Position numbers and translations under genes: made by a program. DNA of 64,000 nt from Cryptosporangium minutisporangium (lineage in GTDB: Bacteria > Actinomycetota > Actinomycetes > Mycobacteriales > Cryptosporangiaceae), in contig NZ_BAAAYN010000066.1 in NCBI RefSeq assembly GCF_039536245.1, positions 1-64,000 on the forward strand. Direction: 5' to 3'. The notes below the pieces were generated by a model. The model was given only the letters and a program-made list of their open reading frames with translations, did no database searches and was not told where the DNA came from. Below are positions 13,048-64,000 of this stretch, piece by piece (the first letter of the stretch is position 1; every line of letters begins with the position of its first letter).

Positions 13048-13150
13048 TCGATGCGGCGGCGCGGGTCCGGCGTCAACTACCTAGGTTCTAAGCTGGGGTT
13101 ACGCGGGACATCGAGGTCCCTGGAGTCCGACTCGAGCCCGGGGAGCCGTC

Positions 13151-15964
13151 ATGCCCGACACGGAGGCCGTGCCCTCTGACCTGTGGGGTCTGGGCAACGT
13201 CAACAGCATCGCGTCCGACGACGCGAACCAGGCAGATCGCGAGCTGCGCGCCGACATCCGGCGGATGGGCAACCTGCTCGGCGAGACGCTGGTCCGCCAA
13301 GAAGGGCCCGACCTGCTGGAGCTCGTGGAGAAGGTGCGCGCGGCCGCCCGCACCGACGCCGCGGCCGCCGCCGACGCGCTGTCCGGCATCGACATCCCGA
13401 CCGCCATCCGGTTGGTGCGCGCGTTCGCCACCTACTTCCACCTGGCGAACATCACCGAGCAGGCGCACCGCGGCCGCGAGCTGCGGCGCCGCCGGGCGAC
13501 CCAGGGTGGCTGGCTGGACGGGGCCGCTCGCCTGATCAAGGCGCGCGGTCTGTCGTCCGAGGAGATCGCCGAGGGCGCCGCGCACCTGGCGATCCGGCCG
13601 GTGTTCACCGCGCACCCGACCGAGGCGGCGCGCCGCTCCACGCTGGCCAAGCTGCGCCGGGTCGCCGACCTGCTGGAGGCGGAGGCCACCGAGGCCGCGT
13701 TCTCCGGCATCTCGGCCGACGGCGCCGGAAACATGGTGACCCGGCGGACGAACCGGGAGCTCGCCGAGGTAGTCGACCTGCTCTGGCAGACCGACGAGCT
13801 GCGGTTGGAGAAGCCGGAGCCCACCGACGAGGCCCGCAACGCGATCTACTACCTCAACGACCTGCACGCCGACGCCGCGCCCGCGGTGCTCACCGAGCTG
13901 GCCGACACGCTGGCCGACCTGGGCGCGGAGATGCCGCCCACCGGCACGCCGCTGACGTTCGGCAGCTGGATCGGCGGTGACCGGGACGGAAACCCGTTCG
14001 TCTCGGCGCAGGTCACCCGCGACGTCCTGCGGCTGCAGCACGAGTACGGCATCCGGGACACCGACGCCGGCCTCGCCGCGCTGATCGAGGAGCTGTCCGT
14101 CTCCGACCAGGTCGTCGAGGTGTCGCAGGAGCTGCTGGACAGCGTCGCGGCAGACCTGGCGAACCTGCCGGAGCTCGAGCCGCGGTACCGCCGGGTCAAC
14201 GCGGCCGAGCCGTACCGGCTGAAGATCCGGTGCATGCGGACGAAGCTCTCCAACACCCGGCAGCGGCTCGCCCGGAACACCCCGCACCAGCCTGGGCGCG
14301 ACTACCTCGGCTCGCACGAGGTGGTCGCAGATCTGGAGCTGATGCGCCGGTCGCTGCTCGAGCACCGCGGGACGCTGATCGCGAACGGCACGCTCACCAA
14401 GCTGATCCGCACGGTCTCGGCGTTCGGGCTGCACCTGGCGACGCTCGACATCCGCGAACACTCCGGGGCGCACCATCGGGCGCTCGCGCAGTTCGTCGAC
14501 AGGGTCGCCGAGCTCGACGTGCCCTACGCGGAGCTGACCCGCGAGGCCCGCACCGAGTACCTGGCCCGTGAGCTGGCCGGACGGCGTCCGCTGGCGGGCG
14601 CTTCCAGCCGGCTCGACGAGGCGGGCGCGAAGACGTTCGGGGTCTTCGGTGCGGTGCGGGAGATCCTCGACCAGTTCGGGCCCGAGGTGATCGAGTCGTA
14701 CATCATCTCGATGACCGAAGGCGTCGACGACGTGCTCGCCGCGGCGGTGCTGGCCCGCGAAGCCGGCCTGATCGACGTCAACGGTGGCCTGGCGCGGATC
14801 GGCTTCGTGCCGCTGCTGGAGCAGGTCGCCGAGCTGAAGGCGGCCGGCGAGATCCTCGACCAGCTGCTGTCGATCCCCGCCTACCGGGCGATCGTCGCCG
14901 CCCGCGGGGACGTCCAGGAGGTCATGCTCGGCTACTCCGACTCGAACAAGGACGCCGGCATCACGTCCAGCCAATGGGAGATCCACCGGGCGCAGCGGGC
15001 GCTGCGGGACGTCGCCCAGCGGCACGGCGTCCGGCTGCGGCTGTTCCACGGCCGCGGCGGCACCGTCGGACGCGGCGGCGGCCCGACGCACGAGGCGATC
15101 CTCGCCCAGCCGTACGGGACGCTCGACGGCGCGATCAAGGTCACCGAGCAGGGCGAGGTGATCTCGGACAAGTACGCGGTGCCCGCGCTGGCCAGGGAGA
15201 ACCTCGAGCTCACCGTCGCCGCCGTGCTGCAGGCGACGCTGCTGCACACCGAGCCCCGGCAGCCGCAGGCCGACCTCGACCGCTGGTCCGAGCTGATGGA
15301 CCGGGTCGCCGCGCCGGCGCAGAAGGCCTACCGGGACCTGATCGGAGACCCGGATCTGCCCCGCTACTTCTGGGCGTCCACGCCGGCCGAGTTGCTGGGC
15401 GCGCTGAACATCGGGTCGCGGCCGGCGAAGCGTCCGGACACCGGGTCGGGGCTGGCCGGGCTGCGGGCGATCCCGTGGGTGTTCGGATGGACGCAGTCCC
15501 GGCAGATCGTGCCGGGCTGGTACGGGGTCGGTACCGGATTCGCCGCCGCCCGCGAGGCCGGGCTCGGCGACCTGCTGGCCGACGCGTACACCCGCTGGCA
15601 TTTCTTCCGGACGTTCGTGTCGAACGTCGAGATGACGCTGGCGAAGACCGACCTGTCGATCGCTCGCCGCTACGTGGAGCGGCTGGTCGACCCGGGGCTG
15701 CGGCACATCTTCGACAAGATCGTCGCCGAGCACGACCGGAGCGTGGGCGAGATCCTGCGGATCACCGGCGAGCCGGCGCTGCTCGACGCCCAGCCGGTGT
15801 TGCAGCGGACGCTGGCCGTGCGCGACACGTACCTGCAGCCCCTGCACCACCTGCAGATCGAGCTGCTGGCGCGGTACCGCGCGAACGAGGACGACCCGCA
15901 GTTGCAGCGAGCGCTGCTGCTCACGATCAACGGCGTCGCCGCGGGCATGCGCAACACCGGCTGA
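13151..15964 (+). CDS. ppc: Phosphoenolpyruvate carboxylase
   Basis: PEP carboxylase makes oxaloacetate from PEP and bicarbonate to refill the TCA cycle. The 937-residue length fits the family. The catalytic-histidine motif [12 protein letters not shown] lies near 151, GGDRDGNP near 276, [10 protein letters not shown] near 594, the glycine-rich loop [12 protein letters not shown] near 635, and the classic C-terminal MRNTG closes the protein. The ATG follows GGGGAG. It appears monocistronic, with a hairpin terminator after it. Confidence 0.97.
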
Positions 15965-52242: not shown

Positions 52243-54029
52243 GAATCCCCCAGCCGCGCCAACTCTTCCTCCACGATCGACTCGTCGAGCTTCTTGAACA
52301 CCGGCTTCGGGGGCGCGAGCGGACGCCCGACCTCGATCGGCCGGGACACCCAGCGGGCGGACGCGGCCGCGTAGTCGCCACTGATCACCGGGTAGTCCGG
52401 TCCGCCCTCCTCGGAAACCTCGCGGACCTCAGGCGAACCCGACCAGACGCCGGTCTCACCGAGCAGCTCGTGCACCTTCTGGGCGGAGTGCGGCAGGAAC
52501 GGCGTCAGCAGGGCCTTGCAGTCGTCGACGACCTGGAGTGCGGTGTACAGGACCGTGTCCCGACGCTCGTGGGTAGAAGGATCCTTCAACGTCCACGGCG
52601 CCTGGTCGGAGAGGTACTTGTTCGCGTCGCCGACCACCCGCATCGCCTCGCCGATCGCCGCCTTGAACCGGGACCGCTCGAGCAGCGCTCCCACCGACGC
52701 GAACGCAGCCTTCGACGAGTCGAGCAGCGCAGCGTCGGCCTCGGTGAGCGTCCCGGGGGTGGGCACCGCACCGACGTTCTTGGCCGCCAGCGAGATCGAC
52801 CGGTTGACCAGGTTGCCCCAGCCGGCGACCAGCTCGTCGTTGTTGCGGCGCCGGAACTCCGTCCAGGTGAAGTCCGTGTCCTGGTTCTCCGGACCGGCCG
52901 CCGCGATGAAGTACCGCAGCGCGTCGGCGTCGTACCGGGACAGGAAGTCGTTGACGTAGATGACCACCCGCCGGGACGAGGAGAACTTCTTGCCCTCCAT
53001 CGTGAGGAACTCGCTGGAGACCACCTCGGTCGGCAGCTCCAGCGTCCCGAACTCGCCCGGCGAACCACCGCGCGACCCACGACCGTCGTAACCGAGCAGC
53101 TCCGCCGGCCAGATCTGGGAGTGGAACGTGATGTTGTCCTTGCCCATGAAGTAGAACGAGGACGCCTCGGGGTTGCACCACCAAGACTTCCACGCGTCCG
53201 GCTCCCCCGAGCGGCGCGCCCACTCGACCGACGCCGAGAGGTACCCGATCACCGCGTCGAACCAGACGTAGAGCCGCTTGCTGGGGTTGTTCTCCCAACC
53301 GGGCAGCGGCACCGGCACGCCCCAGTCGATGTCCCGCGTCATCGCCCGCGGCTTGATGTCGTCGAGCAGGTTCAGCGAGAACTTGAGGACGTTCGGCCGC
53401 CAGTCGGTGCGGGTCTGCAACCAGGACCCGAGCGCCTCGGCCAGCGCCGGCAGGTCCAGGAAGAAGTGCTCGGTCTCGACGAACTGCGGCGTCTCCCCGT
53501 TGATCTTCGAGCGCGGGTCGATCAGGTCGGTGGGGTCGAGCTGGTTGCCGCAGTTGTCGCACTGGTCGCCGCGGGCGCTCGGGTAGCCGCAGATCGGGCA
53601 GGTGCCCTCGATGAAGCGGTCGGGCAGCGTCCGGCCGGTCGACGGGCTGATCGCGCCCTTCGTTGCTTTGGGGATCAGGTACCCGTTGCGGTGCAGGGTC
53701 TTGAACAGCTCCTGGGCCACCGCGTAGTGGTTGCGCGTCGTGGTCCGGGTGAACAGGTCGTAGGAGAGCCCGAGTCCGGTCAGGTCGTCCACGATCACCC
53801 GGTTGTAGCGGTCGGCGAGCTCGCGCGGCGACACGCCCTCCTGCTCGGCCTGCACCAGGATCGGCGTCCCATGCTCGTCCGTCCCGGAGACCATCAGGAC
53901 CTTGTTGCCCGCCATGCGCTGGTACCGGCTGAAGACGTCGGACGGGACGCCGAATCCGGAGACGTGGCCGATGTGCCGCGGACCGTTGGCATAGGGCCAC
54001 GCGACCGCGGTGAGGATGTGACGGGTCAT
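52239..54029 (-). CDS. metG: Methionyl-tRNA synthetase
   Basis: A 596-residue class I aminoacyl-tRNA synthetase. The HIGH motif appears as PRHIGHVSG near 17, the zinc knuckle CPICGYP...CDNC near 139-160 and the KMSKS-type loop as GKKFSSSR near 352. The C-terminal anticodon domain ends without the dimerisation extension found in E. coli. The zinc knuckle has four Cys. The ATG is the only reasonable start. Confidence 0.97.
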
Positions 54030-54218: not shown

Positions 54219-55340
54219 GTGGGCACCAGCAACGACACAACGACGGACATTCGGACGGCCGAGACGGCGTCGGCTCTGTCCACCGAGGTACCGACGTTCG
54301 CCGGTTCACCCTCGTCGGCCGCCGCCGACGAGCCGGTCCTGTTCGAGTGGGACGCTCCGGTCTCCGGCGCTCACCCGCCGGCTGCGAACGCGTCCCGCGC
54401 GGACCCCTCCGACACCGACGAACTCCTGGTGGACGAGGGACGAGCCGCGCCGCACGAGATGGAGGGCGCGGAGCCGCTCCCCCTGGACCTGCCCGACCCG
54501 GCGGCACCACCGGCGCGGCCCGACCCGGAGCCCTCGCTGGTGCTCTACCGATCCGCCCCGCGGACTGGCGCGGACCGCTGGGTGGACGCCGGGCTCGCGC
54601 TGCTGCTCCGGGACCGCGTCCGCGCCGACGGAACACGCACCGGCGGAGCCGCCGGGCAGCACTGGCCCGCTCGGCACAGCATCGCCGGGGTGTCCGGCCT
54701 ACCCGGGAACGTCGGCGGCGTGCTCGGTGCGCATCGCCGGGCGGTCGGCGAGCGGGCCACCCAGCCCTCGATCCGCCGCGGGGCCGCACACGGGAGCCAG
54801 GAGACGACGCCCCCGGCACCTCCCGCCACCCCGAGCCATGCCGGTCTGCGCCACCCCGCGGCCGGACTCGTGCCTGCGCTGGCTCTCGGTCTGCTGGCGG
54901 CGTTCTTCGGCTGGGTGAGCGCGGCGCCATTCTGGCTGGCGAACGGGGTGGGAGCCGAGGGCACCGCGACCGTTACCCACTGTCGGCAGCAGGCGCTCGG
55001 CGACCGCTGCACCGGACGCTTCGTCGCTGACGACGGAACGTTCACCCGGATCGTCCGGCTCGCCGATCTGGATCCGTCCGACCGGGCGACCGGCAGCACC
55101 GTCGATGCTCGGATGCTGCCGGGTGGGAACGTCGCTTACGCCGGGCCAGCCGCCGGTCTGCACCTGCGGTGGATGCTGGGCTTCCTCGGGGTGCTGGCGT
55201 GCGGTGTCGGCGTCGGTGCGGCCACCGGAGTGCAGCGGCTGCGCCGCGAGGGCCCCCGCAAGGTCGGTGTCCTCTGGGCGCTGTCGCTCGGTGGCCCCGC
55301 CGTCCTCGCGCTGATCACTCTGGTCGCCGCGCTCCTGTGA
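54219..55340 (+). CDS. Membrane protein with extracytoplasmic beta loop
   Basis: A 373-residue protein of unknown function. The first 210 residues are acidic, Ala/Pro/Asp-rich and probably disordered, with a KISS-free globular patch near 110-180. A membrane helix (about 221-242) leads to an outside loop with a CRQQALGDRCTGRF cysteine pair near 253-265, like DUF3592-type domains. Two further helices lie at about 312-332 and 347-371. The GTG at 54219 has no clear ribosome site. It converges with rsmI, leaving a 10-bp gap. Confidence 0.7.
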   Translation: MGTSNDTTTDIRTAETASALSTEVPTFAGSPSSAAADEPVLFEWDAPVSGAHPPAANASRADPSDTDELLVDEGRAAPHEMEGAEPLPLDLPDPAAPPARPDPEPSLVLYRSAPRTGADRWVDAGLALLLRDRVRADGTRTGGAAGQHWPARHSIAGVSGLPGNVGGVLGAHRRAVGERATQPSIRRGAAHGSQETTPPAPPATPSHAGLRHPAAGLVPALALGLLAAFFGWVSAAPFWLANGVGAEGTATVTHCRQQALGDRCTGRFVADDGTFTRIVRLADLDPSDRATGSTVDARMLPGGNVAYAGPAAGLHLRWMLGFLGVLACGVGVGAATGVQRLRREGPRKVGVLWALSLGGPAVLALITLVAALL

Positions 55341-55350
55341 CCCGGCCGAA

Positions 55351-56208
55351 TCAGCTCTCGCTCCGCTTCGCCGCCTGCACCGCGTCGTAAACGACGCTGC
55401 GGGAGACGCCGACCGCGGTGGCGACCGCGCGCATCGCCTCCTTGCGCGGCACGCCGCCGGCCTCGGCGAGCGCCACCCGGCGGGCGAGTTCGGCGGCGTC
55501 GGGTGCGTCCTCGGCCCGGGGCGGCGGGGCCCCGGCGATCACGACCGTGATCTCGCCGAGCAGCCCGTCCTTCGCCCAGTCGGCGAGTTCGCCGAGCGTC
55601 CCCCGGCGGACCTCCTCGTGCGTCTTGGTCAACTCCCGGCAGACCGCGGCGTCCCGGTCGGCACCGAACGCCGCCACGGCGTCGGCGAGTGAGGACCCGA
55701 TGCGCTTGGGCGACTCGAAGAACACCATCGTGCGTGGTTCGCTCGCGAGCGCCGCGTACGTGCTCCGCCGCTTGCCCGGCTCCCGGGGCGGGAAGCCCTC
55801 GAAGCAGAACCGAGCGCTCGGCAGGCCGGACAGCGTGATCGCGGTGGTCACCGCCGACGGGCCGGGCAGGACGCTCACCGGGATGTCGGCCGCGATCGCC
55901 GCGGCGACCAGCCGGTACCCGGGATCCGAGACGCTGGGCATGCCGCCGTCCGTGACCAGCAGGACGGTGGCGCCGGCGACAGCCCGGTCCCGCAGGCCGT
56001 CGGTCTGCCGCTGCTCGGTGACGTCGTCGTAGCGGACGATCTGCCCGCCGACGGTCACTCCGAGGTCGGACGCGAGCCGCCGCGCCCGCCGAGTGTCCTC
56101 GGCCGCGATCACGTCCGCGGTCGCCAGCGCGTCCTTCAGCCGATCGGTCGCGTCACCCGGGTTACCCAACGGCACACCAGCGAGGACCACCCTGCCCTGA
56201 GCACTCAC
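55351..56208 (-). CDS. rsmI: 16S rRNA C1402 2'-O-methyltransferase
   Basis: RsmI methylates C1402 of 16S rRNA. The 285-residue tetrapyrrole-methylase-fold enzyme has VLAGVPLGNPGDATDR near 8-23, AAEDTRRARRL near 35, LVTDGGMPSVSDPGY near 83, PGPSAVTTAI near 109 and FFESPKRI near 156. The GTG at 56208 lacks a ribosome site but lies six bases after GATACT, fitting a leaderless transcript. metG-rsmI proximity is common in actinobacteria. Confidence 0.94.
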   Translation of the reverse strand: MSAQGRVVLAGVPLGNPGDATDRLKDALATADVIAAEDTRRARRLASDLGVTVGGQIVRYDDVTEQRQTDGLRDRAVAGATVLLVTDGGMPSVSDPGYRLVAAAIAADIPVSVLPGPSAVTTAITLSGLPSARFCFEGFPPREPGKRRSTYAALASEPRTMVFFESPKRIGSSLADAVAAFGADRDAAVCRELTKTHEEVRRGTLGELADWAKDGLLGEITVVIAGAPPPRAEDAPDAAELARRVALAEAGGVPRKEAMRAVATAVGVSRSVVYDAVQAAKRSES

Positions 56209-56228
56209 CGCACAAGTATCCCGGTCGG

Positions 56229-57410
56229 TTACGCGGCGGGTGTATCCCAGTCGACGTGGTAGCGGTACATCCAGTCGTTGTTCATCGAACGCGACGCCAG
56301 TCGCAGGAACACCGGCATCATCGCGTCCCGCAGCACTCGCCCCACCGGCCCGGCGGCCTTCATCGAGCTGGTCCTTGCGCCGGCCGCCACGACCCGCTCC
56401 ACCCGCGGCCGGCGCAGCGCGACGTAGGTGGCGAACGCGTCCGCGACGTCGGGCAGGTCCCGCAGGCACTTGGCGAGCACCACCGCGTCCTCGATCGCCA
56501 TCGACGCCCCCTGCCCGGACGACGGTGCCGTCGCGTGTGCGGCGTCCCCGGCCAGGACCACTCGCCCGCGGTACCAGTTCGGCACCGCGCGGAGGTCGTA
56601 CGTGGCCCAGCCGGTCATGGGGTTCGTGCTCGCCTCGATCAACGCGACGGCCGGCGAGCGATCTCCGGCGAAGAGGTCGAGCAGCCGTTGCCGCCACGCG
56701 TCACCCGTGGCGATCTCGGCGAGTTCCGCCGCCGTCGGCGGGGTGGGATACGGCGGGTTGGCGAACCACCACACCTCGCCGTTCGGCGCCGGTACGTAGC
56801 CGAAGAACGCGCGCTTGCCGAAGACCATCGTGAACGTTCCCGGCTCGGCGTCGACCTCCACACCGCGGGCGTAGCCACCGGTGTTCAGTACCGGCACGTA
56901 CCGCGGAGCCGGTGCGTCCGGGTCGATGACGGTCCGGGTCAACGAGTGCAGGCCGTCGCACCCGACCAGGAGGTCGCCCTGCGCCTCGCTCCCGTCCGCG
57001 AAGCGGGCTCGGACGCCGTCCGGCGTCTGCTCGACGCCGACCAGGCTCTTGCCGTACTCGACCGGCACGCCCCGCCGCACCGCCTCGTCGCGAAGCGCCC
57101 GGTACAGGTCGGCACGGCGGATCGTCCGGCTCGTCGCGCCCTCGGCCCCGTGCGCCATCCGGCCGAGCACCCGGCCGGTTCCGCTGCGCATCACCATCCG
57201 GGGCGTCGGGAACGCGGCGGCCTCGACCGGCTCGGCCGCCCCGAGAACGCGCAGAGCGTCCATTCCGTTGCCGGCGAACGTGAGGAACAGCCCGACGTCG
57301 TCCGCGACGTCCGGATGCCGCTCGTAGATCGTCGCGTCCAGACCGGCGCGGCGGAGCGCGATCGCGGCCGCCGCGCCGGCGACGCCACCACCGATGACAA
57401 GCGCATGCAT
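56229..57410 (-). CDS. FAD-dependent monooxygenase
   Basis: A 393-residue group A flavoprotein monooxygenase (PHBH fold). It has the FAD dinucleotide motif VIGGGVAGAAAA near 5-16, the DG motif VGCDGLHS near 145 and the GD motif LAGDAAHATAPSSGQG near 287. Such enzymes hydroxylate aromatic substrates; the substrate here is unknown. The ATG at 57410 faces a MarR gene across 54 bp, so the MarR protein probably represses it and is relieved by the substrate or a drug. Confidence 0.9.
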   Translation of the reverse strand: MHALVIGGGVAGAAAAIALRRAGLDATIYERHPDVADDVGLFLTFAGNGMDALRVLGAAEPVEAAAFPTPRMVMRSGTGRVLGRMAHGAEGATSRTIRRADLYRALRDEAVRRGVPVEYGKSLVGVEQTPDGVRARFADGSEAQGDLLVGCDGLHSLTRTVIDPDAPAPRYVPVLNTGGYARGVEVDAEPGTFTMVFGKRAFFGYVPAPNGEVWWFANPPYPTPPTAAELAEIATGDAWRQRLLDLFAGDRSPAVALIEASTNPMTGWATYDLRAVPNWYRGRVVLAGDAAHATAPSSGQGASMAIEDAVVLAKCLRDLPDVADAFATYVALRRPRVERVVAAGARTSSMKAAGPVGRVLRDAMMPVFLRLASRSMNNDWMYRYHVDWDTPAA

Positions 57411-57433
57411 GACCGTCTCCGTCCGTGGAAGTA

Positions 57434-57453
57434 TTTCGTTCGGCCAAACTAAA
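57434..57453. promoter_or_regulatory. Candidate MarR operator
   Basis: TTTCGTTCGG/CCAAACTAAA forms a 20-bp palindrome with two mismatched positions in the 54-bp divergent promoter. It lies 11 bp before the MarR start. Confidence 0.55.
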
Positions 57454-57464
57454 CATAAAGTACG

Positions 57465-57941
57465 ATGTCAAGCGTGGCCTCCGAACGCGAGACGCTGATC
57501 GCGCAGCTGGACATGGCGGGACGGGCGCTCAGCACGGTGGCGGTCATGTTCCACACGGCGCTCGCCGAACTCTCCGGGCTGAGCGCCACCGAGCAGAAGG
57601 CGCTGGATCTGATCGAGCGGTTCGGCCCGCTCACCGCCGGCGATCTCGCTCAGCGCTCGGGCCTCGCGCCCGCCTCGGTCACCGGCCTGTTGAGCCGTCT
57701 GGAGAAGAAGGGGTTCGCACGGCGCATCCCCAACCCGGAGGACCGGCGCAGCGTCCTGGTCGAGATCGTCCGCGGCCGCCTGGATGCGATCGGACCGCAC
57801 TTCGTCGAGTTGCTGCGGCCGTTGCACCAGCTCTACGACACGTTCAGCGACGAGGAGCTGCGCGCGATCTTGCGCTACCTGACCGAGGCGGCGAGGCTCC
57901 AGCAGGAGGTCACCGGACGGCTCCCGAGGGCCGACAGATGA
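57465..57941 (+). CDS. MarR-family regulator
   Basis: A 158-residue winged-helix repressor. The DNA-binding core lies at about 35-105 with LTAGDLAQRSGLAPASVTGL (recognition helix) and the wing region RRIPNPEDRRSVLVEI; flanking helices form the dimer. It is divergent to the FAD monooxygenase with a palindrome between, a typical autoregulated pair. It ends six bases from the converging membrane-protein gene. Confidence 0.92.
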   Translation: MSSVASERETLIAQLDMAGRALSTVAVMFHTALAELSGLSATEQKALDLIERFGPLTAGDLAQRSGLAPASVTGLLSRLEKKGFARRIPNPEDRRSVLVEIVRGRLDAIGPHFVELLRPLHQLYDTFSDEELRAILRYLTEAARLQQEVTGRLPRADR

Positions 57942-57947
57942 GCGGCC

Positions 57948-58958
57948 TCACGCGCTCAGGACGAGGTACTCCTCCAGGGATTTGCCCAGCGACCAGAGGT
58001 ACTCGAAATCGGCCGCCCGCTTCCTGAGCTGACCGATGTCGAGCACCAACTTGGTGTTGAGGATCGCCGGCACCGCATGGTTCACCCGGCTCGACGAGGC
58101 CACGGTCTCGTAGCTGACGTCGCCGTCGAAGATGATGAAGTCGCGCAGGTCCATGTGGGACTGGTTGATGCGGTGGTAGTCGAGCACCCGAAGGTCGATA
58201 CCGGCGGCCCGCTGCATCGTGCAGATGTCCCGGAATCCTTCGTCGGTGACCATGTCGGGCTTGTCGAAGATGAAGATGCGCCGCACCGTCACGCCGCGCT
58301 GCCGGGCGTCCTGTTGAGCCTGGAGGTACCGGCGCCCGAGCGCGCTCTGCCAGAAGCCGTTCCCGAAACTGTCACCGCCGGCGTCCACCGTCGCGAAGCT
58401 GGTGGCGTCGATGTGGGAGCGCGTGCAGTCGGTCAAGCCGATCAGCCAGTCCCGGTCCTCACCCTCGTAGGTGGCCTCGCCGGCAGCCAGCGCCTTCAAG
58501 AAGGACGACGTGCGAGTGATTTCGTTCTGCGCGAACTCGTAGACGAGATCGGGCTCGCCCGGCTTGATCAGGATCGCGTGCCGGACCATCTGGGTGACCG
58601 CGTCGGAACGCGCCGCACTCTCCTCCAGCATTCCCAGCAGACGCGACGACTCGGTGATCCGCGTGAATGCGCGATGGACCACCTCGTGAATGTTCTGCTC
58701 GTGGTCGATCTGCCGCTCTTCGATCGCCCGTAATCGCCCATCCAGCTCCATCAGGAACTGGACGACCAGCACGACGCCGCCGAGGAAGACCGAGAGTGTC
58801 AGCGCGGTCAGTGCGGCCTGATCCGGTGCGCCCGATCCGCGCGCATTGGTCAAGCTCGTCAGTCCGTAGGTCAGTCCGCCGATCGCCAACGAAATAACGA
58901 TGCGCCAAGCAATTCGCGCGTTGCTTCCCCCCATGCGACGACTCGTCCCCCCGCTCAT
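57948..58958 (-). CDS. Membrane protein with PLD-like/unknown C-terminal domain
   Basis: A 336-residue protein at the end of the SCO2521-2525-like cluster. Two membrane helices (about 20-40 and 48-70) are followed by a coiled coil (about 72-110) with LRAIEERQIDHEQNIHEV, and a soluble alpha/beta domain (about 175-310). Strands IDATSFATVD, VRRIFIFDKPD and LRDFIIFDGDVSYE in that domain resemble phospholipase-D-like folds without HKD motifs. The ATG at 58958 follows GGGAG at 5 nt and overlaps the stop of the SCO2521 remnant (ATGA). Function unknown; it may be the membrane sensor or anchor of the cluster. Confidence 0.75.
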   Translation of the reverse strand: MSGGTSRRMGGSNARIAWRIVISLAIGGLTYGLTSLTNARGSGAPDQAALTALTLSVFLGGVVLVVQFLMELDGRLRAIEERQIDHEQNIHEVVHRAFTRITESSRLLGMLEESAARSDAVTQMVRHAILIKPGEPDLVYEFAQNEITRTSSFLKALAAGEATYEGEDRDWLIGLTDCTRSHIDATSFATVDAGGDSFGNGFWQSALGRRYLQAQQDARQRGVTVRRIFIFDKPDMVTDEGFRDICTMQRAAGIDLRVLDYHRINQSHMDLRDFIIFDGDVSYETVASSSRVNHAVPAILNTKLVLDIGQLRKRAADFEYLWSLGKSLEEYLVLSA

Positions 58959-59251
58959 CCGCACTCCCCTACTGATTCCTGCGGCATCACATCCAGGTGC
59001 CTGACCGGAGCCACCGCGGATCGGTCGCACACTCGGTCGGCCTGCGCCCGCCGGACCAGGGCGGATACGCGGCCCACGCCGGCCGCCGGCAGTCTCCCAG
59101 CGCGCTCCGCGGCCGGCGAGCCGATCGTGTCCGGCCGCGCCCGGTGATCGGCGACACGGTGCGTCATCGAATTTGTAATCGGCGTGGAATGTCGCAGCAG
59201 CCCGGTGTGTACCTCGTCAAGTACCAGCACTCTCGCCCCCGGTCCAGTCAC
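58955..59251 (-). pseudogene. Remnant of a second SCO2521-like gene
   Basis: An open frame of 98 codons starting GTG at 59251. Its first ~26 residues, with VLVLDEVHTGLLRHSTPI, resemble the start of the intact SCO2521-like protein (MLAMSEIHTGLAQYPTSV), including the EhHTGL core. The rest is Arg/Ala-rich and does not resemble the family. It ends overlapping the next gene. I read it as a truncated copy whose 3' part was lost or scrambled; it could still be translated and couple the downstream gene. Confidence 0.65.
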
Positions 59252-59257
59252 AGCCGG

Positions 59258-59433
59258 CTATGGCTCGCCGACGTTCCCGCCAAAAACGTAGTTGATGCGG
59301 TTCGCGATTTCGCGGGGAAGACGGAAACCTTCGGCCACACTTCGCTGAGTGATCTACCCGACCACCGCACCGTCCACATTAATTCGGCTGAGAATCACCG
59401 GCACCGTCTGCTCCACCAGTCAGAAACAGGTCA
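59258..59433 (-). pseudogene. Remnant of the 3' end of a second SCO2522-like gene
   Basis: Reading leftward in one frame to a TAG at 59258-59260, about 55 codons align without gaps with the last ~50 residues of the intact SCO2522-like protein: LVEQTVPVIL with ATEHAVRTIL, INVDGAV with VEVDPAV, and LPREIANRINYVF with LPREIIERISYVF. The frame holds two stops, TGA at 59420-59422 and TAG at 59354-59356, so it is dead. It begins at the methyltransferase stop, showing that the rest was deleted when the junction formed. Confidence 0.75.
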
Positions 59434-60183
59434 CTACACCTTCTTCCGGCCGACGGCGAGGATCATGCCGTCATAACCCTCGCGGAGCGATCCGTCCTCG
59501 GTGGCCGCCGGCTCGTAGTGCACGCTCAGCCCCTCCACCACCGGCGAGAGCAGGCGGGTGATGTCATCCCGGTCCACCCGTACCGCCGGGAAGGGCTTGC
59601 CTGCCACCTGATAACCCCGCGAGTTCTCCATGAATGCACTGGCCAACGGCGCCCCTGGCTTGAGTAGCGTCAGGAAACGCTCCAGGGCGAGTTTGAACTC
59701 TTCCCAGTCGGCCGAGATCGACTCCGCTACGAAGAACATCGTCCCGATGTCGTACTGCACCTCCGGCTCGAACGTGTAGAGGTCACGGAGGAGGACCGAC
59801 CCGGCCCGACGAAACGCGGCTCGCGGATCCATGATTCGGCGATAGATTGCGTTCTCGCACAAAACTTGCCAAAAAGGATCCCACGATCGATCGTAGAAAC
59901 ACAACTGTCCGGCAATCCATCGCACGTTCGATACGGAGCGGTCCAGCAACGTCAACTTCTCGACGAAGGGAAGCATCGTGAAAGCCGGATACAAATTGGC
60001 GCCGGTTCCGAGATCGACACCGATCGCGCCCGGGCGCGGCGGGTGGGCGGTGAAATGGTCGCGCGTCGCGATGATGAAGTTTCGGTCGTCCCCGCGCAGC
60101 GTCCGGTAGTTGTGCCGGAGATAGCTTTTCGCATCGAAATCGTTCCAGTTGACTTCTTCATTGCGCGGCTGGCCGGCATCCAT
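59434..60183 (-). CDS. SCO2525-like SAM-dependent methyltransferase
   Basis: A 249-residue class I methyltransferase resembling the NNMT/PNMT-like group and the actinobacterial SCO2525 family. It has the family-type start NWNDFDAKSYLRHNYRTL, motif I GVDLGTGANLYPAFTML near 51-67, LTLLDRSVSNVRW near 74 and MFFVAESISADWEEF near 150. The substrate is unknown. The ATG at 60183 follows GGGGGAG at 5 nt. A 180-bp AT-richer gap with a palindrome separates it from the SCO2521-like gene, so it may have its own promoter. Confidence 0.85.
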   Translation of the reverse strand: MDAGQPRNEEVNWNDFDAKSYLRHNYRTLRGDDRNFIIATRDHFTAHPPRPGAIGVDLGTGANLYPAFTMLPFVEKLTLLDRSVSNVRWIAGQLCFYDRSWDPFWQVLCENAIYRRIMDPRAAFRRAGSVLLRDLYTFEPEVQYDIGTMFFVAESISADWEEFKLALERFLTLLKPGAPLASAFMENSRGYQVAGKPFPAVRVDRDDITRLLSPVVEGLSVHYEPAATEDGSLREGYDGMILAVGRKKV

Positions 60184-60292
60184 CAGCACTCCCCCGGATC
60201 TACGGCGGCAGATGCTCGACAGCACTTCCCAGAAATCCCGCTGCCAACCTTTACAGCGTAGATGGTGGATGACCACCGCTGAGTGAAAATTC

Positions 60293-60311
60293 CGTGATCA
60301 GGTGAATCACG
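60293..60311. promoter_or_regulatory. Palindrome upstream of methyltransferase
   Basis: CGTGAT-N7-ATCACG lies about 110 bp before the methyltransferase start in the AT-richer gap 60184-60363. It could be an operator; the GTGA...TCAC arrangement is like sites of several actinobacterial regulators. Confidence 0.45.
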
Positions 60312-60363
60312 TCAATGGCGCGGTGAGACGAAAGCGCATTGTTGTGAACAGCGAGACACATTT

Positions 60364-61344
60364 CTACTCGCCGACGGCTCGGGGCTCCGCCCGGCTACCC
60401 AGCCCGCGCAACAGAGTGATCGTGTGCATCGCTAGCTGATCGCGGATACGAGCGACCTGCGTGTCCCACTGCCGGCTGAACCCCGATGCGCGCTCCAGGC
60501 TTTCCCAGTACGGCGTCAGCTGGTCGTCCAACCGGGCCGTCGGCATCCACAGGTGCAGCAGGTGATCCACGATCGGCTGCAGCTTCGCCAACGCCTGGTC
60601 GTCGATGCCCTGATCGAGGCGGCTTCGGTCGACGTAGGTCTTCAACGCGGTGAGCAACCAGTCGTGCCTGGCCACGACCGCGGCGAAATCACCGGCCTGG
60701 TCCGGCGTCAGGGAGGAGGATCGTATCCGGAGCACTCGCAGCGATCCGTCTTGCAGGCCGAACGCGACGCGATCCTCACCGCCGTCCTCGGTGAGCTGCA
60801 GTACCCAGCGGAGTTGGGTCCGCGCGCCCCGGATCGCGCGCGGGCGTCGCGCCGCCGGTAGCTTCTGCCCCTCTCTCAGGAGCGAACGCTGCACCTCGTC
60901 CATGAGCCGCTCCGCGATACCACCCAGGTACAGTCCGGAGCCCGCCGCCGCGGTCAGGAAGCCATCGGCGATCGCGTCCGGCCGGGTCTTACCGATGGTC
61001 TCCACGATGCCCGGACGAGTCAGGTAGTACGCCCAGGGCCGGCGTCGGTCGGATTCGCTCCGGACCACCTCGACCATCGCCGACGATTGAAGAATTCGCT
61101 CCCCGCTGATCGAGGCGCGGCTCGCGACGGCGCCCACCACCCGGGGTCGGCCGCCGGACGAGGTCACGAGACGACAATCGACGCCGACGAAGGCGTCCGG
61201 GGAGACGACGTAGGGCACGGGCCGTTCGAAAGCGCGTACCGACTCACCGACCCGCTGCAAGGCGAGCGCTTGCCTGGCCACCCTCGACGGTACGGATGTC
61301 GGGTACTGGGCCAGCCCGGTGTGGATCTCGCTCATGGCCAGCAT
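60364..61344 (-). CDS. SCO2521 family protein
   Basis: A 326-residue protein of the conserved actinobacterial SCO2521 family, function unknown. The N-terminal EIHTGLAQYP motif, VSPDAFVGVDCRLVT near 48 and VGAVASRASISGERILQSSA near 71 mark the family-like core. The second half is helical with no membrane segment or known catalytic motif. The ATG follows AGGGGG. It lies 33 bp after the SCO2522-like gene in one leftward operon. A broken second copy exists at 58955-59251. Confidence 0.82.
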   Translation of the reverse strand: MLAMSEIHTGLAQYPTSVPSRVARQALALQRVGESVRAFERPVPYVVSPDAFVGVDCRLVTSSGGRPRVVGAVASRASISGERILQSSAMVEVVRSESDRRRPWAYYLTRPGIVETIGKTRPDAIADGFLTAAAGSGLYLGGIAERLMDEVQRSLLREGQKLPAARRPRAIRGARTQLRWVLQLTEDGGEDRVAFGLQDGSLRVLRIRSSSLTPDQAGDFAAVVARHDWLLTALKTYVDRSRLDQGIDDQALAKLQPIVDHLLHLWMPTARLDDQLTPYWESLERASGFSRQWDTQVARIRDQLAMHTITLLRGLGSRAEPRAVGE

Positions 61345-61377
61345 GTGGAGCCCCCTGTCGACGCGCCACCGGGCGCA

Positions 61378-62349
61378 CTACGCACTGAGCGGTCCGCCTC
61401 CGAGAAACACGTAACTGATTCGTTCGATGATCTCGCGGGGCAGCGCGAGTTGTTCGTTTTCGGCACGCCCGTCGACGTCGCGGAGGACGGCGGGGTCCAC
61501 CTCGACCTGTCCCAGTATCGTCCGCACCGCGTGCTCAGTAGCCAGGAATCGATTGGTCATCACCGACAGCGTGCGATAAGCGCTGAAGGGGTCGGCGCGC
61601 TCGTTCAGACGCACAACGGGGGGTACGTCGTCCCAGCTGTCCGGCCAGGACGCCGGAGCATCGGCGAGCGCCGTCACCGGCTTTCCCTCGAAGCGCAGGA
61701 CGCCCAGCCGGAGTAGTTGCCAGACCGCGGCCAGGTAGGCGCACGACCATTTCTCCGCCCCGGTGTCGCCGCTCCACAATTCGATGTCCATGAACACCGA
61801 GTGATTCCGCGCGGCGTTCTCGGTCGGCGGCTGCCACGCCTTACCCGCCTGCATCGCCTCGAGCCCGGTCGACGGTGATCTCATGCCGTTCGAGAGCCAG
61901 CCGACCTCGGTGACCGGTGGGCGGGAGCCGTTGGTTCCGGCAGGTGGCTCGGCGACCAACCGGGACCGCACCAGCGGAGCCAGCGGCACACCGCCCGCCT
62001 CGGCGCACGCTGATTCCCGCGCGATGTAGTCGATGGTGAGGCCGGCTTCGGCCGCGGCGTCGATCACCGCGGGCAGGACCGCCCCCGGCGGGAACGATCG
62101 CCGGAAGTAGTCGTCGACGAGGAAACACGTACTCACTCGCGGGCGCTTCTGGCCGGCCGTCAGCTCTTCGGTCCCGAGCTTCACCCACGGCGCCAGCCGA
62201 CGGAAGTACGCCGTCAAGTCGGTCTGCCCGGGTGCGAAGTCCTCCATGTACAAGTGGCCGACCTCGATGGACACATGCGACAGCGGCACCGAGGCAACGG
62301 GACGGAGCGCACCAGCCGCTTCGCTGTGGGTGGCTTTGACCGGGCTCAC
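61378..62349 (-). CDS. SCO2522 family protein
   Basis: A 323-residue protein of the SCO2522 family, function unknown. Core segments include VSIEVGHLYMEDF near 26-38, VSTCFLVDDYFRRSFPPG near 71, a HSVFMDIELWSGDTGAEKWSC region near 184, and the C-terminal LPREIIERISYVFLGG. The mixed alpha/beta pattern and conserved acidic residues (VDDY, DIELW) hint at an enzyme, which is inference. Its GTG start overlaps the P-loop gene stop (GTGA), so the two are made together. Confidence 0.82.
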   Translation of the reverse strand: MSPVKATHSEAAGALRPVASVPLSHVSIEVGHLYMEDFAPGQTDLTAYFRRLAPWVKLGTEELTAGQKRPRVSTCFLVDDYFRRSFPPGAVLPAVIDAAAEAGLTIDYIARESACAEAGGVPLAPLVRSRLVAEPPAGTNGSRPPVTEVGWLSNGMRSPSTGLEAMQAGKAWQPPTENAARNHSVFMDIELWSGDTGAEKWSCAYLAAVWQLLRLGVLRFEGKPVTALADAPASWPDSWDDVPPVVRLNERADPFSAYRTLSVMTNRFLATEHAVRTILGQVEVDPAVLRDVDGRAENEQLALPREIIERISYVFLGGGPLSA

Positions 62350-63266
62350 AAGCCCTCCCAGGAGGCCGTGTCGAGCAGCTTCTTGGCGAGCGAGGCGAAC
62401 GCCTGCGTCGTCTCCAGGTTGGCGACCTTACGATTCGCGACGTCCTCGTCGAGAATCAGCTGCTCGCGCCACTGCAGGACCGGATCGAGGGGAACGGTAC
62501 CGAGCCGCGCGGTCTGTCCGAGACGCTGCTTGCTCGCCAGGTCGGCGAGTTGGCGGTCGGTGTTGTGCAACCAGGCGATCTGCGGCGGTTGGAGCCCACG
62601 AACAGACGGCGAGTCCGGATCGACATAGGCGGTCCGGACGAATCGCAGCCCGTTCTGCAGCTTCTTCGCCTCGTGCCCGAGGGCCACGCCGTTGTCCAGG
62701 ATCCCGCCGACGCCGTACACCAGGCCGTTCGCGGCGATGATGTGCTGCCGCGTCCAGCGATGGAAGACCAGCCACCGAACGATCGCGGAACCGAGCTCCG
62801 GCGCTCGCGTCGCCTCCAGGACGATGTCCGTCGCGAACGAGCGCCCCGCGCTCAAATCCACCAGGCAGAGGTCGAACTCCTCGTCCAGGCGCGCGAGCAG
62901 GCGAACACAACGCTCGATCGCCGCCGGGGTGGCCGCGAACTCGCCTCCCCCCTCGTCACCCGGGAACAACACCAGCTCACCCGCGCTCCGGGGACGCGCC
63001 TCCCGGATCTCCTCCCGATCCGAGTCGTTCCAGACGTCGACCTCCAGCGGGGTGGCACCGGTCTCGTGGAGGCAGCTGTGGAGACCCCCCGCCTGCGCGC
63101 CGCGGGCGAGGCCGTGGATCTGGAAGATCGCCCCGGCGGTCGGCGATCCGAAATCGAAGTCCAGGTAACACGCGTCGGCGCCTTGCAGCGCAGCGCGATA
63201 GGCGATGTTGGCGCTGGTGACGGAGCGGCCGGTGCCGCCTTTGTCGGAGGTCGCGAATACCAACAC
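62346..63266 (-). CDS. SCO2523 family variant P-loop protein
   Basis: A 306-residue ParA/MinD/SIMIBI-type NTPase-like protein. Its Walker A reads ATSDKGGTGRSVTSANIA near 5-22: the deviant KGGTGKS/T lysine is replaced by Arg. Other ParA features remain: CYLDFDFGSPTAG near 34 (switch-like Asp) and LCLVDLSAGRS near 131 (Walker B/switch II). The family is known for this variant loop. The GTG at 63266 follows AAGGA and lies two bases after the SCO2524-like stop. It may bind nucleotide or partners without normal hydrolysis. Confidence 0.85.
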   Translation of the reverse strand: MLVFATSDKGGTGRSVTSANIAYRAALQGADACYLDFDFGSPTAGAIFQIHGLARGAQAGGLHSCLHETGATPLEVDVWNDSDREEIREARPRSAGELVLFPGDEGGGEFAATPAAIERCVRLLARLDEEFDLCLVDLSAGRSFATDIVLEATRAPELGSAIVRWLVFHRWTRQHIIAANGLVYGVGGILDNGVALGHEAKKLQNGLRFVRTAYVDPDSPSVRGLQPPQIAWLHNTDRQLADLASKQRLGQTARLGTVPLDPVLQWREQLILDEDVANRKVANLETTQAFASLAKKLLDTASWEGL

Positions 63267-63268
63267 GG

Positions 63269-64000
63269 CTAGATCCTTCCCGCGTCCAGGCGGGCGACCT
63301 CCAGCTCGTTCAATGCACGCAACACGTCGTTGGCCAGGACGGCAGCGGTCGCCGGACGCTCGGACACGAGGACGCGGGCGCGGCGTAGATTCTCCCGCAT
63401 CGCGTGCATCGTCGCCTGGATCTTGGTGTTGGCCTGCGCCGAACTCCGCTCCTGCTCCTGGTCGAAGAGCTGCTCTGCCTCGCCCAACACGGCCCAGGCA
63501 TGCTCCACGAGCGGATCGCTGGAGAGCGGCCGGCCCTCGAAGAGCTTCGACAAAGCGACCAGGGATTCCACGATGCGCTCGGTGAAGTACCACGACGGCC
63601 GCTCGTGCCGAGGCAGCGACTCCTCGAGCGGGAAGACCTCGGCCGGCTGGTCCCAGAGTGATTTGCCGGGGCCTTTGCGTAGCCGTCGACGGAGCAGGTA
63701 GGTCCAGACCTCCTCGGCCAGGTCGAGCAGATCCCGGCGAAGCTCCTGGCTGCGGGCCAGGGCGGCCACGGCCACGGTCCGCTTCAGCAGCATCGCGGCG
63801 TAGTCGGAGACGATCCAGGTCAGCTGCTGGGGGCCGGACAGCTCGCTCCCGACCAGCCGCAGCTGCAGGCCCGGCGAGTGCAGCGCGACCGCCGGGTCGT
63901 TGGCCACCGCACGCCGGGTGATCCGGCCACGGCTCGCCAGCTCGTTCAGCACCTGCAGGATCTTGCTCAGCTCCGCGTCGGTGGCACGGCGACGGTCGAG
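63269..64000 (-). CDS. SCO2524 family protein, partial
   Basis: The 5' part lies beyond the window; the open frame runs to the edge. The visible ~243 residues are the C-terminus of a helical protein, with ATDAELSKILQVLNELASRG at the edge, AMLLKRTVAVAALARSQEL and DQEQERSSAQANTKIQATMH. No catalytic motif or membrane helix is seen. Position directly before the variant P-loop gene matches the SCO2524 family. It is the first visible gene of the operon. Confidence 0.75.
   Translation of the reverse strand, partial: LDRRRATDAELSKILQVLNELASRGRITRRAVANDPAVALHSPGLQLRLVGSELSGPQQLTWIVSDYAAMLLKRTVAVAALARSQELRRDLLDLAEEVWTYLLRRRLRKGPGKSLWDQPAEVFPLEESLPRHERPSWYFTERIVESLVALSKLFEGRPLSSDPLVEHAWAVLGEAEQLFDQEQERSSAQANTKIQATMHAMRENLRRARVLVSERPATAAVLANDVLRALNELEVARLDAGRI

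What the first reader, a model, noticed from the sequence alone, without database searches (positions are those of the whole stretch)
57948..64000. SCO2521-SCO2525-type system of unknown function
Five adjacent leftward genes match, in order, the actinobacterial families I recognise as SCO2524 (partial), SCO2523 variant P-loop, SCO2522, SCO2521 and SCO2525 methyltransferase. Three of the junctions overlap or nearly touch. Such a fixed set with a ParA-like variant NTPase, a methyltransferase and three orphan families, plus a local coiled-coil membrane protein, looks like one machine. No function is established to my knowledge, and the membrane protein may be a lineage-specific sixth part.
Basis: partly seen in the sequence, partly recalled or inferred. 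Interest (0 to 1): 0.78.

Follow-up and report, generated by a model that had tools for sequence, protein, structure and literature searches.

The report
Actinobacterial core with swappable effector genes
A conserved but unexplained set of actinobacterial genes is paired, in different genomes, with one of several interchangeable partner genes that look like membrane-acting or NAD-destroying devices, which suggests a self-sacrifice or immunity switch rather than an ordinary metabolic operon.

Summary
Window 59434-64000 carries SCO2525, SCO2521, SCO2522, SCO2523 and the end of SCO2524, all above NCBIfam cut-offs. A second SCO2525 gene lies past the window edge.

The "lineage-specific" membrane protein (57948-58958) is the usual sixth gene: two transmembrane helices, coiled coil, and a phospholipase-D-fold domain (DUF6879) without the catalytic HxKx4D motif. 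Of 149 SCO2524 copies, 94 have it downstream. In 46 the place holds another gene: NACHT/NB-ARC (28, mostly DUF4062-NACHT-HEAT), a channel-like two-helix protein (8), a two-helix glyoxalase-fold protein (8), TIR (2, one locus); 9 have none. No copy has two types downstream. Only about six replacements are needed on the tree. TIR is fused to SCO2521 in two same-genus genomes, and to the pseudo-PLD domain once. SCO2522 is modelled as class I aminoacyl-tRNA-synthetase-like, without sequence support.

In the window the core was apparently exchanged beside a retained partner gene, leaving a stop-ridden SCO2522 relic.

Best reading: a conflict or programmed-death switch with interchangeable outputs (inferred, 0.55). 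Against it: ordinary flanks, stable position, no assay, and a reported developmental role of SCO2525.

The parts
63269..64000 (-). SCO2524 family gene, 3' part only; continues to contig 65113 (614 aa)
   Evidence: NF040567 889 bits on the full protein; L007:8270-10114
62346..63266 (-). SCO2523 family, MinD/ParA-like with KGGTGRS in place of a canonical Walker A
   Evidence: NF040564 470.8 bits; Pfam ParA/CbiA below gathering; motif count
61378..62349 (-). SCO2522 family; predicted class I aminoacyl-tRNA-synthetase-like (HUP) fold; true start may be internal
   Evidence: NF040566 443.4 bits; model; VIA-align, Foldseek weak, no profile signal
60364..61344 (-). SCO2521 family; proposed adaptor for the output protein
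   Evidence: NF040565 324.4 bits; TIR-fused relatives in C31 and G396:C17
59434..60276 (-). SCO2525 family methyltransferase, downstream copy (start uncertain, probably near 60183-60189); a second copy lies outside the window at contig 65145-66062
   Evidence: NF040568 291.3 bits, second copy 295.8 bits
59261..59431 (-). Relic of the C-terminal ~58 codons of another SCO2522, two in-frame stops
   Evidence: E 3.9e-7; 72% identity to the G397 copy
57948..58958 (-). Sixth gene, output slot: 336 aa, two membrane helices, coiled coil and DUF6879 pseudo-phospholipase-D-fold domain
   Evidence: Pfam PF21806; AlphaFold2 model; PLD-fold matches; no HxKx4D in 105 of 105 relatives

Best explanation
The locus is a conflict or programmed-cell-death (abortive-infection-like) switch with an interchangeable output. 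SHOWN by comparison: a fixed core (SCO2524-2523-2522 in one operon, SCO2521 beside it, SCO2525 methyltransferase optional) is accompanied by one type of output gene out of several unrelated ones, and TIR can be fused either to SCO2521 or to the pseudo-PLD domain. INFERRED: SCO2524, SCO2523 and SCO2522 form the sensing and holding complex; SCO2521 is the adaptor that docks the output protein; on an unknown trigger the output is released, giving membrane damage with the two-helix proteins (the window's form) or NAD+ loss with the TIR and DUF4062 forms; the methyltransferase tunes or restrains the switch.
For: Output slot: of 149 SCO2524 copies, 94 DUF6879, 28 NACHT/NB-ARC, 8 channel-like, 8 glyoxalase-type, 2 TIR, 9 none, no copy with two types downstream. 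Zero NACHT, TIR, channel-like or glyoxalase-type matches among 1359 further flanking genes, against 28, 2, 8 and 8 among 527 genes within two of the core (profiles were built from slot members). SCO2521-TIR fusions in the window's genome (C31) and in G396. TIR fused to the same pseudo-PLD subfamily elsewhere in the window's genome, so the two-helix head stands where a TIR effector can stand. DUF4062 is a TIR-like NADase with antiphage activity in a 2026 preprint (PMC13174449), and its candidate Glu is kept in 10 of 10 aligned slot domains (not mapped to the published E97). The core in the window is exchanged relative to its partner gene: 90.3% identity of the partner to G397 but 57, 60, 56 and 43% for SCO2524, 2523, 2522 and 2521. 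Distribution is patchy: 8 of 396 in the phylum sample, 20 of 121 in one genus, 38 of 397 in the order.
Against: Only about six replacements are needed on the tree; channel-like and glyoxalase types are one clade each. L060 has a Roc-TIR-WD40 gene upstream in addition to a DUF6879 gene, so exclusivity holds only downstream. Seventy random flanking proteins look like ordinary metabolism and transport. Position near metG is stable in all four genomes of the genus. No relative in plasmid or viral collections. Core proteins have no good PADLOC match. Reported phenotype of SCO2525 is developmental. No toxicity or protection has been measured.
Confidence: 0.55

Rival explanations
1. A housekeeping signalling complex for growth or development of mycelial actinobacteria; the two-helix pseudo-PLD protein is its membrane anchor or receptor, and NACHT and TIR forms are signalling variants rather than killers.
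For: Second-hand reports that SCO2525 is needed for normal growth or has a morphogenetic role, and HupS control of sco2521-sco2526 (passages). Stable chromosomal position and ordinary flanks. Named hosts in the 80-locus set are largely mycelial genera (lifestyle recalled).
Against: Patchy presence even within one genus (20 of 121); replacement of the sixth gene by TIR- and DUF4062-bearing proteins.
Confidence: 0.25
2. A biosynthetic cluster: methyltransferase, synthetase-like SCO2522 and neighbouring flavin oxidases and acetyltransferases make a modified amino-acid metabolite, and the membrane protein senses or exports it.
For: SCO2525 resembles NNMT/PNMT; SCO2522 model resembles class I synthetases; DAO-type flavoenzymes near 51 of 94 DUF6879-type copies.
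Against: Flavoenzymes near only 5 of the other 55 copies and methyltransferase near 86 of 149; no KMSKS-like motif in 140 SCO2522 proteins; does not explain the NACHT and TIR forms.
Confidence: 0.12
3. The sixth genes are unrelated neighbours; the core works without them and the swap is hitch-hiking in large genomes rich in NACHT and TIR genes.
For: Only about six replacements on the tree; 9 of 149 copies have no recognised sixth gene; profiles used to count enrichment were built from slot members.
Against: SCO2521-TIR fusion in two genomes; partner and SCO2521 stay together in either orientation; full-length slot-type DUF6879 proteins (over 240 bits) in 8 of 397 genomes, all 8 with the core.
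Confidence: 0.08

Closest known systems
NCBIfam families NF040564-NF040568 (SCO2523, SCO2521, SCO2522, SCO2524, SCO2525)
   Same: All five window and contig proteins exceed the curated cut-offs.
   Different: The NCBIfam descriptions returned state no function; the sixth slot gene, its swaps and the TIR fusions are found here. No held paper names these families or SCO2520; three mention the locus tags.
Swarozyc / DUF4062 TIR-like NADases (PMC13174449; abstract, Results part 1 and passages seen)
   Same: 24 of the 28 NACHT-type slot proteins have a DUF4062-type N-terminus by profile (four confirmed in Pfam).
   Different: Swarozyc is described there as a DUF4062 protein with an auxiliary domain; here DUF4062-NACHT-HEAT stands beside the SCO2521-2524 core. 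The window's own locus has no DUF4062.
Actinobacterial ternary and GTPase conflict systems (Kaur et al. 2020, PMC7159879; passages seen)
   Same: Interchangeable effectors including TIR and AP-ATPase; MinD/ParA-like domains predicted inactive; enrichment in multicellular prokaryotes.
   Different: Their core is vWA, MoxR and VMAP or similar; none of these was seen by Pfam in the core genes here.
Phospholipase D / Nuc superfamily and TrmB/FAM83 pseudo-PLD domains
   Same: Fold of residues ~158-330 of the window protein: 7e0m Z 14.9 rmsd 2.8 over 152; FAM83B Z 14.0; TrmB Z 11.8.
   Different: No HxKx4D in 105 of 105 relatives; Asp replaces the Lys in 104.
Class I aminoacyl-tRNA synthetases (ArgRS, MetRS, CysRS)
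   Same: Predicted fold of most of SCO2522: 215 residues aligned to ArgRS, Z 12.4, rmsd 3.9; all 50 rows shown are such enzymes, many of them the same T. brucei MetRS.
   Different: No KMSKS-like motif, only 323 residues, no profile signal, weak Foldseek score (best E 8e-3).

Membership tests
SCO2521-SCO2525 families (NCBIfam) | Score above each curated cut-off | tested here: met
   all five families
SCO2521-SCO2525 families (NCBIfam) | Neighbouring genes in fixed order | tested here: met
   SCO2524 then codirectional SCO2523 in 143 of 149 copies; layouts
DUF6879 (Pfam PF21806) | Score above gathering | tested here: met
   28.8 bits against 23.9; 45 of 48 slot proteins match at E 0.01 or better
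Phospholipase D superfamily, catalytic | PLD fold | tested here: met
   Z up to 14.9 on the predicted model
Phospholipase D superfamily, catalytic | HxK(x)4D catalytic motif | tested here: not met
   0 of 105 proteins
ParA/MinD ATPases | Canonical Walker A KGGxGK[ST] | tested here: not met
   KGGTGR[S/T] in 124 of 125 with motif found; Pfam ParA and CbiA below gathering
Class I aminoacyl-tRNA synthetase | Catalytic-core fold | tested here: inconclusive
   Predicted model Z 12.4, Foldseek E 8e-3, hhalign no signal, though MetRS against ArgRS scored only 19%
Class I aminoacyl-tRNA synthetase | KMSKS motif | tested here: not met
   0 of 140 SCO2522 proteins by regex; HIGH equivalent could not be placed without coordinates
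VMAP ternary conflict systems | vWA, MoxR and VMAP components | tested here: not met
   Pfam scans of the window core and SCO2524 show none; definition from passages of PMC7159879
Known antiphage systems (PADLOC-DB 2.0.0) | Core proteins match a defence model | tested here: not met
   Five of six window/contig proteins no match at E 0.01; SCO2523 only PDC-M28B at E 6e-4, 17 bits. The C31 TIR proteins do match (ThsB 41.6 bits; SAVED_TIR 33 bits)
Antiphage or cell-death systems in general | Protection or killing shown by experiment | not testable with these tools
   Needs expression and deletion experiments

The most novel reading that the evidence does not exclude
A stand-alone aminoacyl-tRNA-synthetase-like protein (SCO2522), held with an arginine-Walker MinD-like protein, makes or senses an aminoacyl-type or tRNA-charging signal that fires a membrane-acting protein or an NAD+ hydrolase through the SCO2521 adaptor: an immune or death switch that reads the state of translation.
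Probability: 0.15. Interest if true: 0.92.

Novelty: new variant of a known kind. Interest (0 to 1): 0.72.

Why it matters
Five protein families that NCBI names only by locus tag get a joint, testable role. If right, the set joins the effector-swapping conflict systems with a core of three or four proteins that I did not meet in the papers I saw on such systems, and it occurs in genetically tractable actinobacteria. It also gives DUF6879, for which no held paper was found, a fold and a probable part.

Tried and rejected
Lineage-specific membrane gene: rejected, 94 of 149 copies. The Fisher test (0 of 109 loci with both DUF6879 and NACHT, p 7e-13) is not used as a probability because the loci are related; the tree count replaces it. 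Potassium-channel claim: the GFGD filter-like motif of L098 is not kept in the other seven, and Pfam finds nothing in the three tested, so 'channel-like' means topology only. Sequence search for solved relatives of SCO2522, SCO2521, DUF6879 protein and SCO2524: none, none, five at E 0.2-0.46, one at E 0.07, none taken as real. Profile test of the synthetase likeness: the first run chose frames badly and used 1 and 3 sequences; repeated with 18 MetRS and 20 ArgRS rows it gave no signal, no better than against unrelated families. Several of those rows are over-long reading frames and MetRS against ArgRS itself scored only 19%, so it is a weak negative. Rfam: nothing at 55000-64000. Promoter scan 0 found, terminator-like 6 against 4.6 expected. 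PMC8195603: none of six terms found. Apparent losses of SCO2521 or SCO2522 in eight loci were gene-caller misses in six; L062 and L120 truly lack them. L120 is counted as NACHT by profile, but Pfam shows NB-ARC-WD40 beside a broken SCO2524. The L218 shorter TIR protein is only a neighbour.
Full report
OBSERVATION. The window is the first 64 kb of a 92.4-kb contig (C66) of a 9.23-Mb genome. Reading past the edge completes the first gene. On the minus strand, in order of transcription: SCO2525-type methyltransferase (contig 65145-66062), SCO2524 (63269-65113), SCO2523 (62346-63266), SCO2522 (61378-62349), SCO2521 (60364-61344), a second SCO2525 (59434-60276) and the 336-aa membrane protein (57948-58958). 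All five family assignments exceed the NCBIfam cut-offs. Pfam sees little: ParA and CbiA below gathering, NNMT/PNMT for the methyltransferase, DUF6879 for the membrane protein.

SAMPLE. I read neighbourhoods of SCO2524 copies from a scan of named genomes (421 relatives, best 80 held), the phylum sample (8 of 396 genomes), close relatives (7 of 61), the genus of G275, probably Streptomyces by size and synteny, a recalled inference (20 of 121 over cut-off), and the window's order (38 of 397). Genes were called by a codon-usage script and labelled with profiles built from the loci themselves. In total 149 SCO2524 copies were examined. The sample leans towards relatives of the query and its members are not independent. 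No relative was found in PLSDB plasmids or IMG/VR contigs, although one named locus, L046, is on a record titled plasmid.

CORE. SCO2524 is followed directly by SCO2523 on the same strand in 143 of 149 copies, median gap 1 nt. In the same 397 genomes SCO2524 is found in 38 and SCO2522 in 39; the 38 are shared and the extra one, G736, carries SCO2523-2522-2521 without a recognised SCO2524. The methyltransferase was detected near 86 of 149 copies, so it is optional. SCO2521 and the sixth gene vary together: both follow the core, or both face it, or the sixth gene stands between SCO2522 and SCO2521 (layouts).

THE SIXTH GENE IS A SLOT. One state per SCO2524 copy, looking downstream: DUF6879 membrane protein 94, NACHT/NB-ARC 28, channel-like two-helix protein 8, two-helix protein with a proline-alanine-rich linker and a glyoxalase-fold end 8 (Pfam tested in one), TIR 2 (both copies at the C31 locus of the window's genome), none 9; no copy has two types. 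An exception outside this rule: L060 has a DUF6879 gene downstream and a Roc-TIR-WD40 gene upstream of SCO2525. The 28 comprise 24 proteins with a DUF4062-type N-terminus by profile (DUF4062, NACHT and HEAT seen by Pfam in the four tested), two shorter calls (L071, L170), L041 (NACHT plus formylglycine-enzyme-like domain) and L120 (NB-ARC-WD40 beside a broken SCO2524). In the G275 genus 22 of the 24 loci read have the DUF6879 gene. Among 1359 further flanking genes there are no NACHT, TIR, channel-like or glyoxalase-type matches and 7 DUF6879; the profiles were built from slot members. A quick tree of 145 SCO2524 proteins needs 6 changes among the five types; channel-like and glyoxalase types are one clade each, NACHT needs 4 (at least 3), and with 'none' there are 14 changes (several long branches). 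The swap is real but rests on about half a dozen events.

FUSIONS. In the window's genome the C31 copy has SCO2521 fused to a C-terminal TIR domain (37.1 bits, cut-off 28) and a TIR-ATPase gene just upstream. A second SCO2521-TIR fusion lies in the same-genus genome G396 (32.2 bits), so this may be one event. On C79 of the window's genome a TIR domain is fused to the pseudo-PLD subfamily of the window's membrane protein (137 bits to the slot profile; Pfam TIR_2 98 and DUF6879 31 bits). A two-helix head and a TIR head on the same receiver domain suggest that the head is the effector; this is an inference.

THE WINDOW'S OUTPUT PROTEIN. AlphaFold2 (48 rows, pLDDT 87.7, pTM 0.69) gives helices 12-39 and 45-113 (two membrane spans and coiled coil), two more helices and an alpha/beta domain from about 158. 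That domain matches phospholipase D, NucT, Nuc, PLD3 and FAM83 (Z 13.6-14.9) and TrmB (Z 11.8) (Foldseek E down to 2e-8). HxK(x)4D is absent in 105 of 105 proteins, but the site is not random: Asp stands at the Lys position in 104 and the final Asp is kept in 105. I read it as a repurposed, probably non-hydrolytic PLD fold.

SCO2522 AND SCO2523. The SCO2522 model (51 rows, pLDDT 86.5, pTM 0.86) aligns over residues 22-323 with class I aminoacyl-tRNA synthetase cores; all 50 rows shown are such enzymes, many the same T. brucei MetRS, best ArgRS Z 12.4 with 215 residues, rmsd 3.9. Foldseek is weak (E 8e-3, none below 0.001), profile comparison gives nothing, and no KMSKS-like motif exists in 140 proteins. 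It is a fold lead only. SCO2523 has KGGTGR[S/T] in 124 of the 125 sequences where the motif was found, 18 others giving no match: the Walker lysine is arginine.

DUF4062. A 2026 preprint (PMC13174449; abstract, part 1 of Results and passages read) reports that DUF4062 is a TIR-like NADase with a conserved catalytic Glu and that a Klebsiella member, Swarozyc, is a portal-triggered abortive-infection protein. The slot domains keep a Glu in S-I-T-x-L-E-Y in 10 of 10 aligned; I did not map it to their E97.

EVENT IN THE WINDOW. Between SCO2525 and the membrane gene lies a relic of the last ~58 codons of a SCO2522 with two stops, 72% identical to the G397 copy. The window's membrane protein is 90.3% identical to that of G397 and 74% to those of G396 and G398, while its SCO2524, 2523, 2522 and 2521 are 57, 60, 56 and 43% identical to G397; for SCO2524, 2522 and 2521 the nearest relative is the second, tandem core of G396 (72, 56 and 51%), for SCO2523 several are about equal. 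The simplest history is a tandem pair of cores, as still seen in G396, of which this genome lost the one that went with the membrane gene. Whether the two work together now is not shown.

AGAINST A DEFENCE READING. Seventy random flanking proteins, one each from 70 of 142 eligible loci, look like transport and metabolism; none of the 25 Pfam families displayed of 106 is an immune domain, singletons mostly not displayed, and PADLOC gives nine families with one to three members each. In all four genomes of the genus metG lies about 7 to 11 kb from a SCO2524 copy, so the site is stable. The published facts are developmental: SCO2525 'necessary for normal growth' or with 'a morphogenetic role', both citing Gehring 2004, and sco2521-sco2526 in the HupS regulon (passages). 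A search for the locus tags found three papers, for the family names and SCO2520 none; so I found no printed description of the slot in this library. A switch that loses its restraint would also give a growth defect, so the phenotype does not decide.

VERDICT. Real, conserved and under-described. Conflict or programmed-death switch with exchangeable outputs 0.55, developmental signalling complex 0.25, biosynthetic cluster 0.12, chance association 0.08.

Noticed in passing
window 52443-54005: metG (MetRS) lies about 7-11 kb from a SCO2524 copy in all four genomes of this genus: a stable chromosomal site.
   Followed up: partly
L020-L099 and others, next to the slot gene or SCO2521: DAO-type FAD oxidoreductases (glycine-oxidase-like or D-amino-acid-oxidase-like by length, Pfam DAO in the two tested) lie near 51 of 94 DUF6879-type copies and 5 of the other 55; many of these loci are close relatives.
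   Followed up: partly
L218:8311-9282 (G000:C79): TIR domain fused to a pseudo-PLD DUF6879 domain, with no core gene in the stretch read.
   Followed up: partly
L217:15360-16361 (G000:C67): Orphan two-helix pseudo-PLD protein with no core gene on its 17.6-kb contig.
   Followed up: partly
L008:4447-6828 and 11958-13820 (G000:C31): TIR-ATPase with ThsB-like match upstream of the C31 core, and a further SCO2524 on the opposite strand just downstream of the SCO2521-TIR fusion.
   Followed up: partly
L140:8649-13407: nSTAND1-WD40 gene overlapping a very divergent SCO2524 homologue that lacks the rest of the core.
   Followed up: no
L120:4943-10418 (G396:C20): Broken SCO2524 convergent with an NB-ARC-WD40 gene in a same-genus genome.
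   Followed up: no
L049, L066, L119, L121: GNAT acetyltransferase genes sit near the core in several lineages (Pfam in four tested).
   Followed up: no
window 55351-57941: rsmI-like 16S rRNA methyltransferase, a FAD_binding_3 monooxygenase (56229-57410) and a 158-aa gene (57465-57941, +) beside the slot gene; not treated as parts of the system.
   Followed up: no
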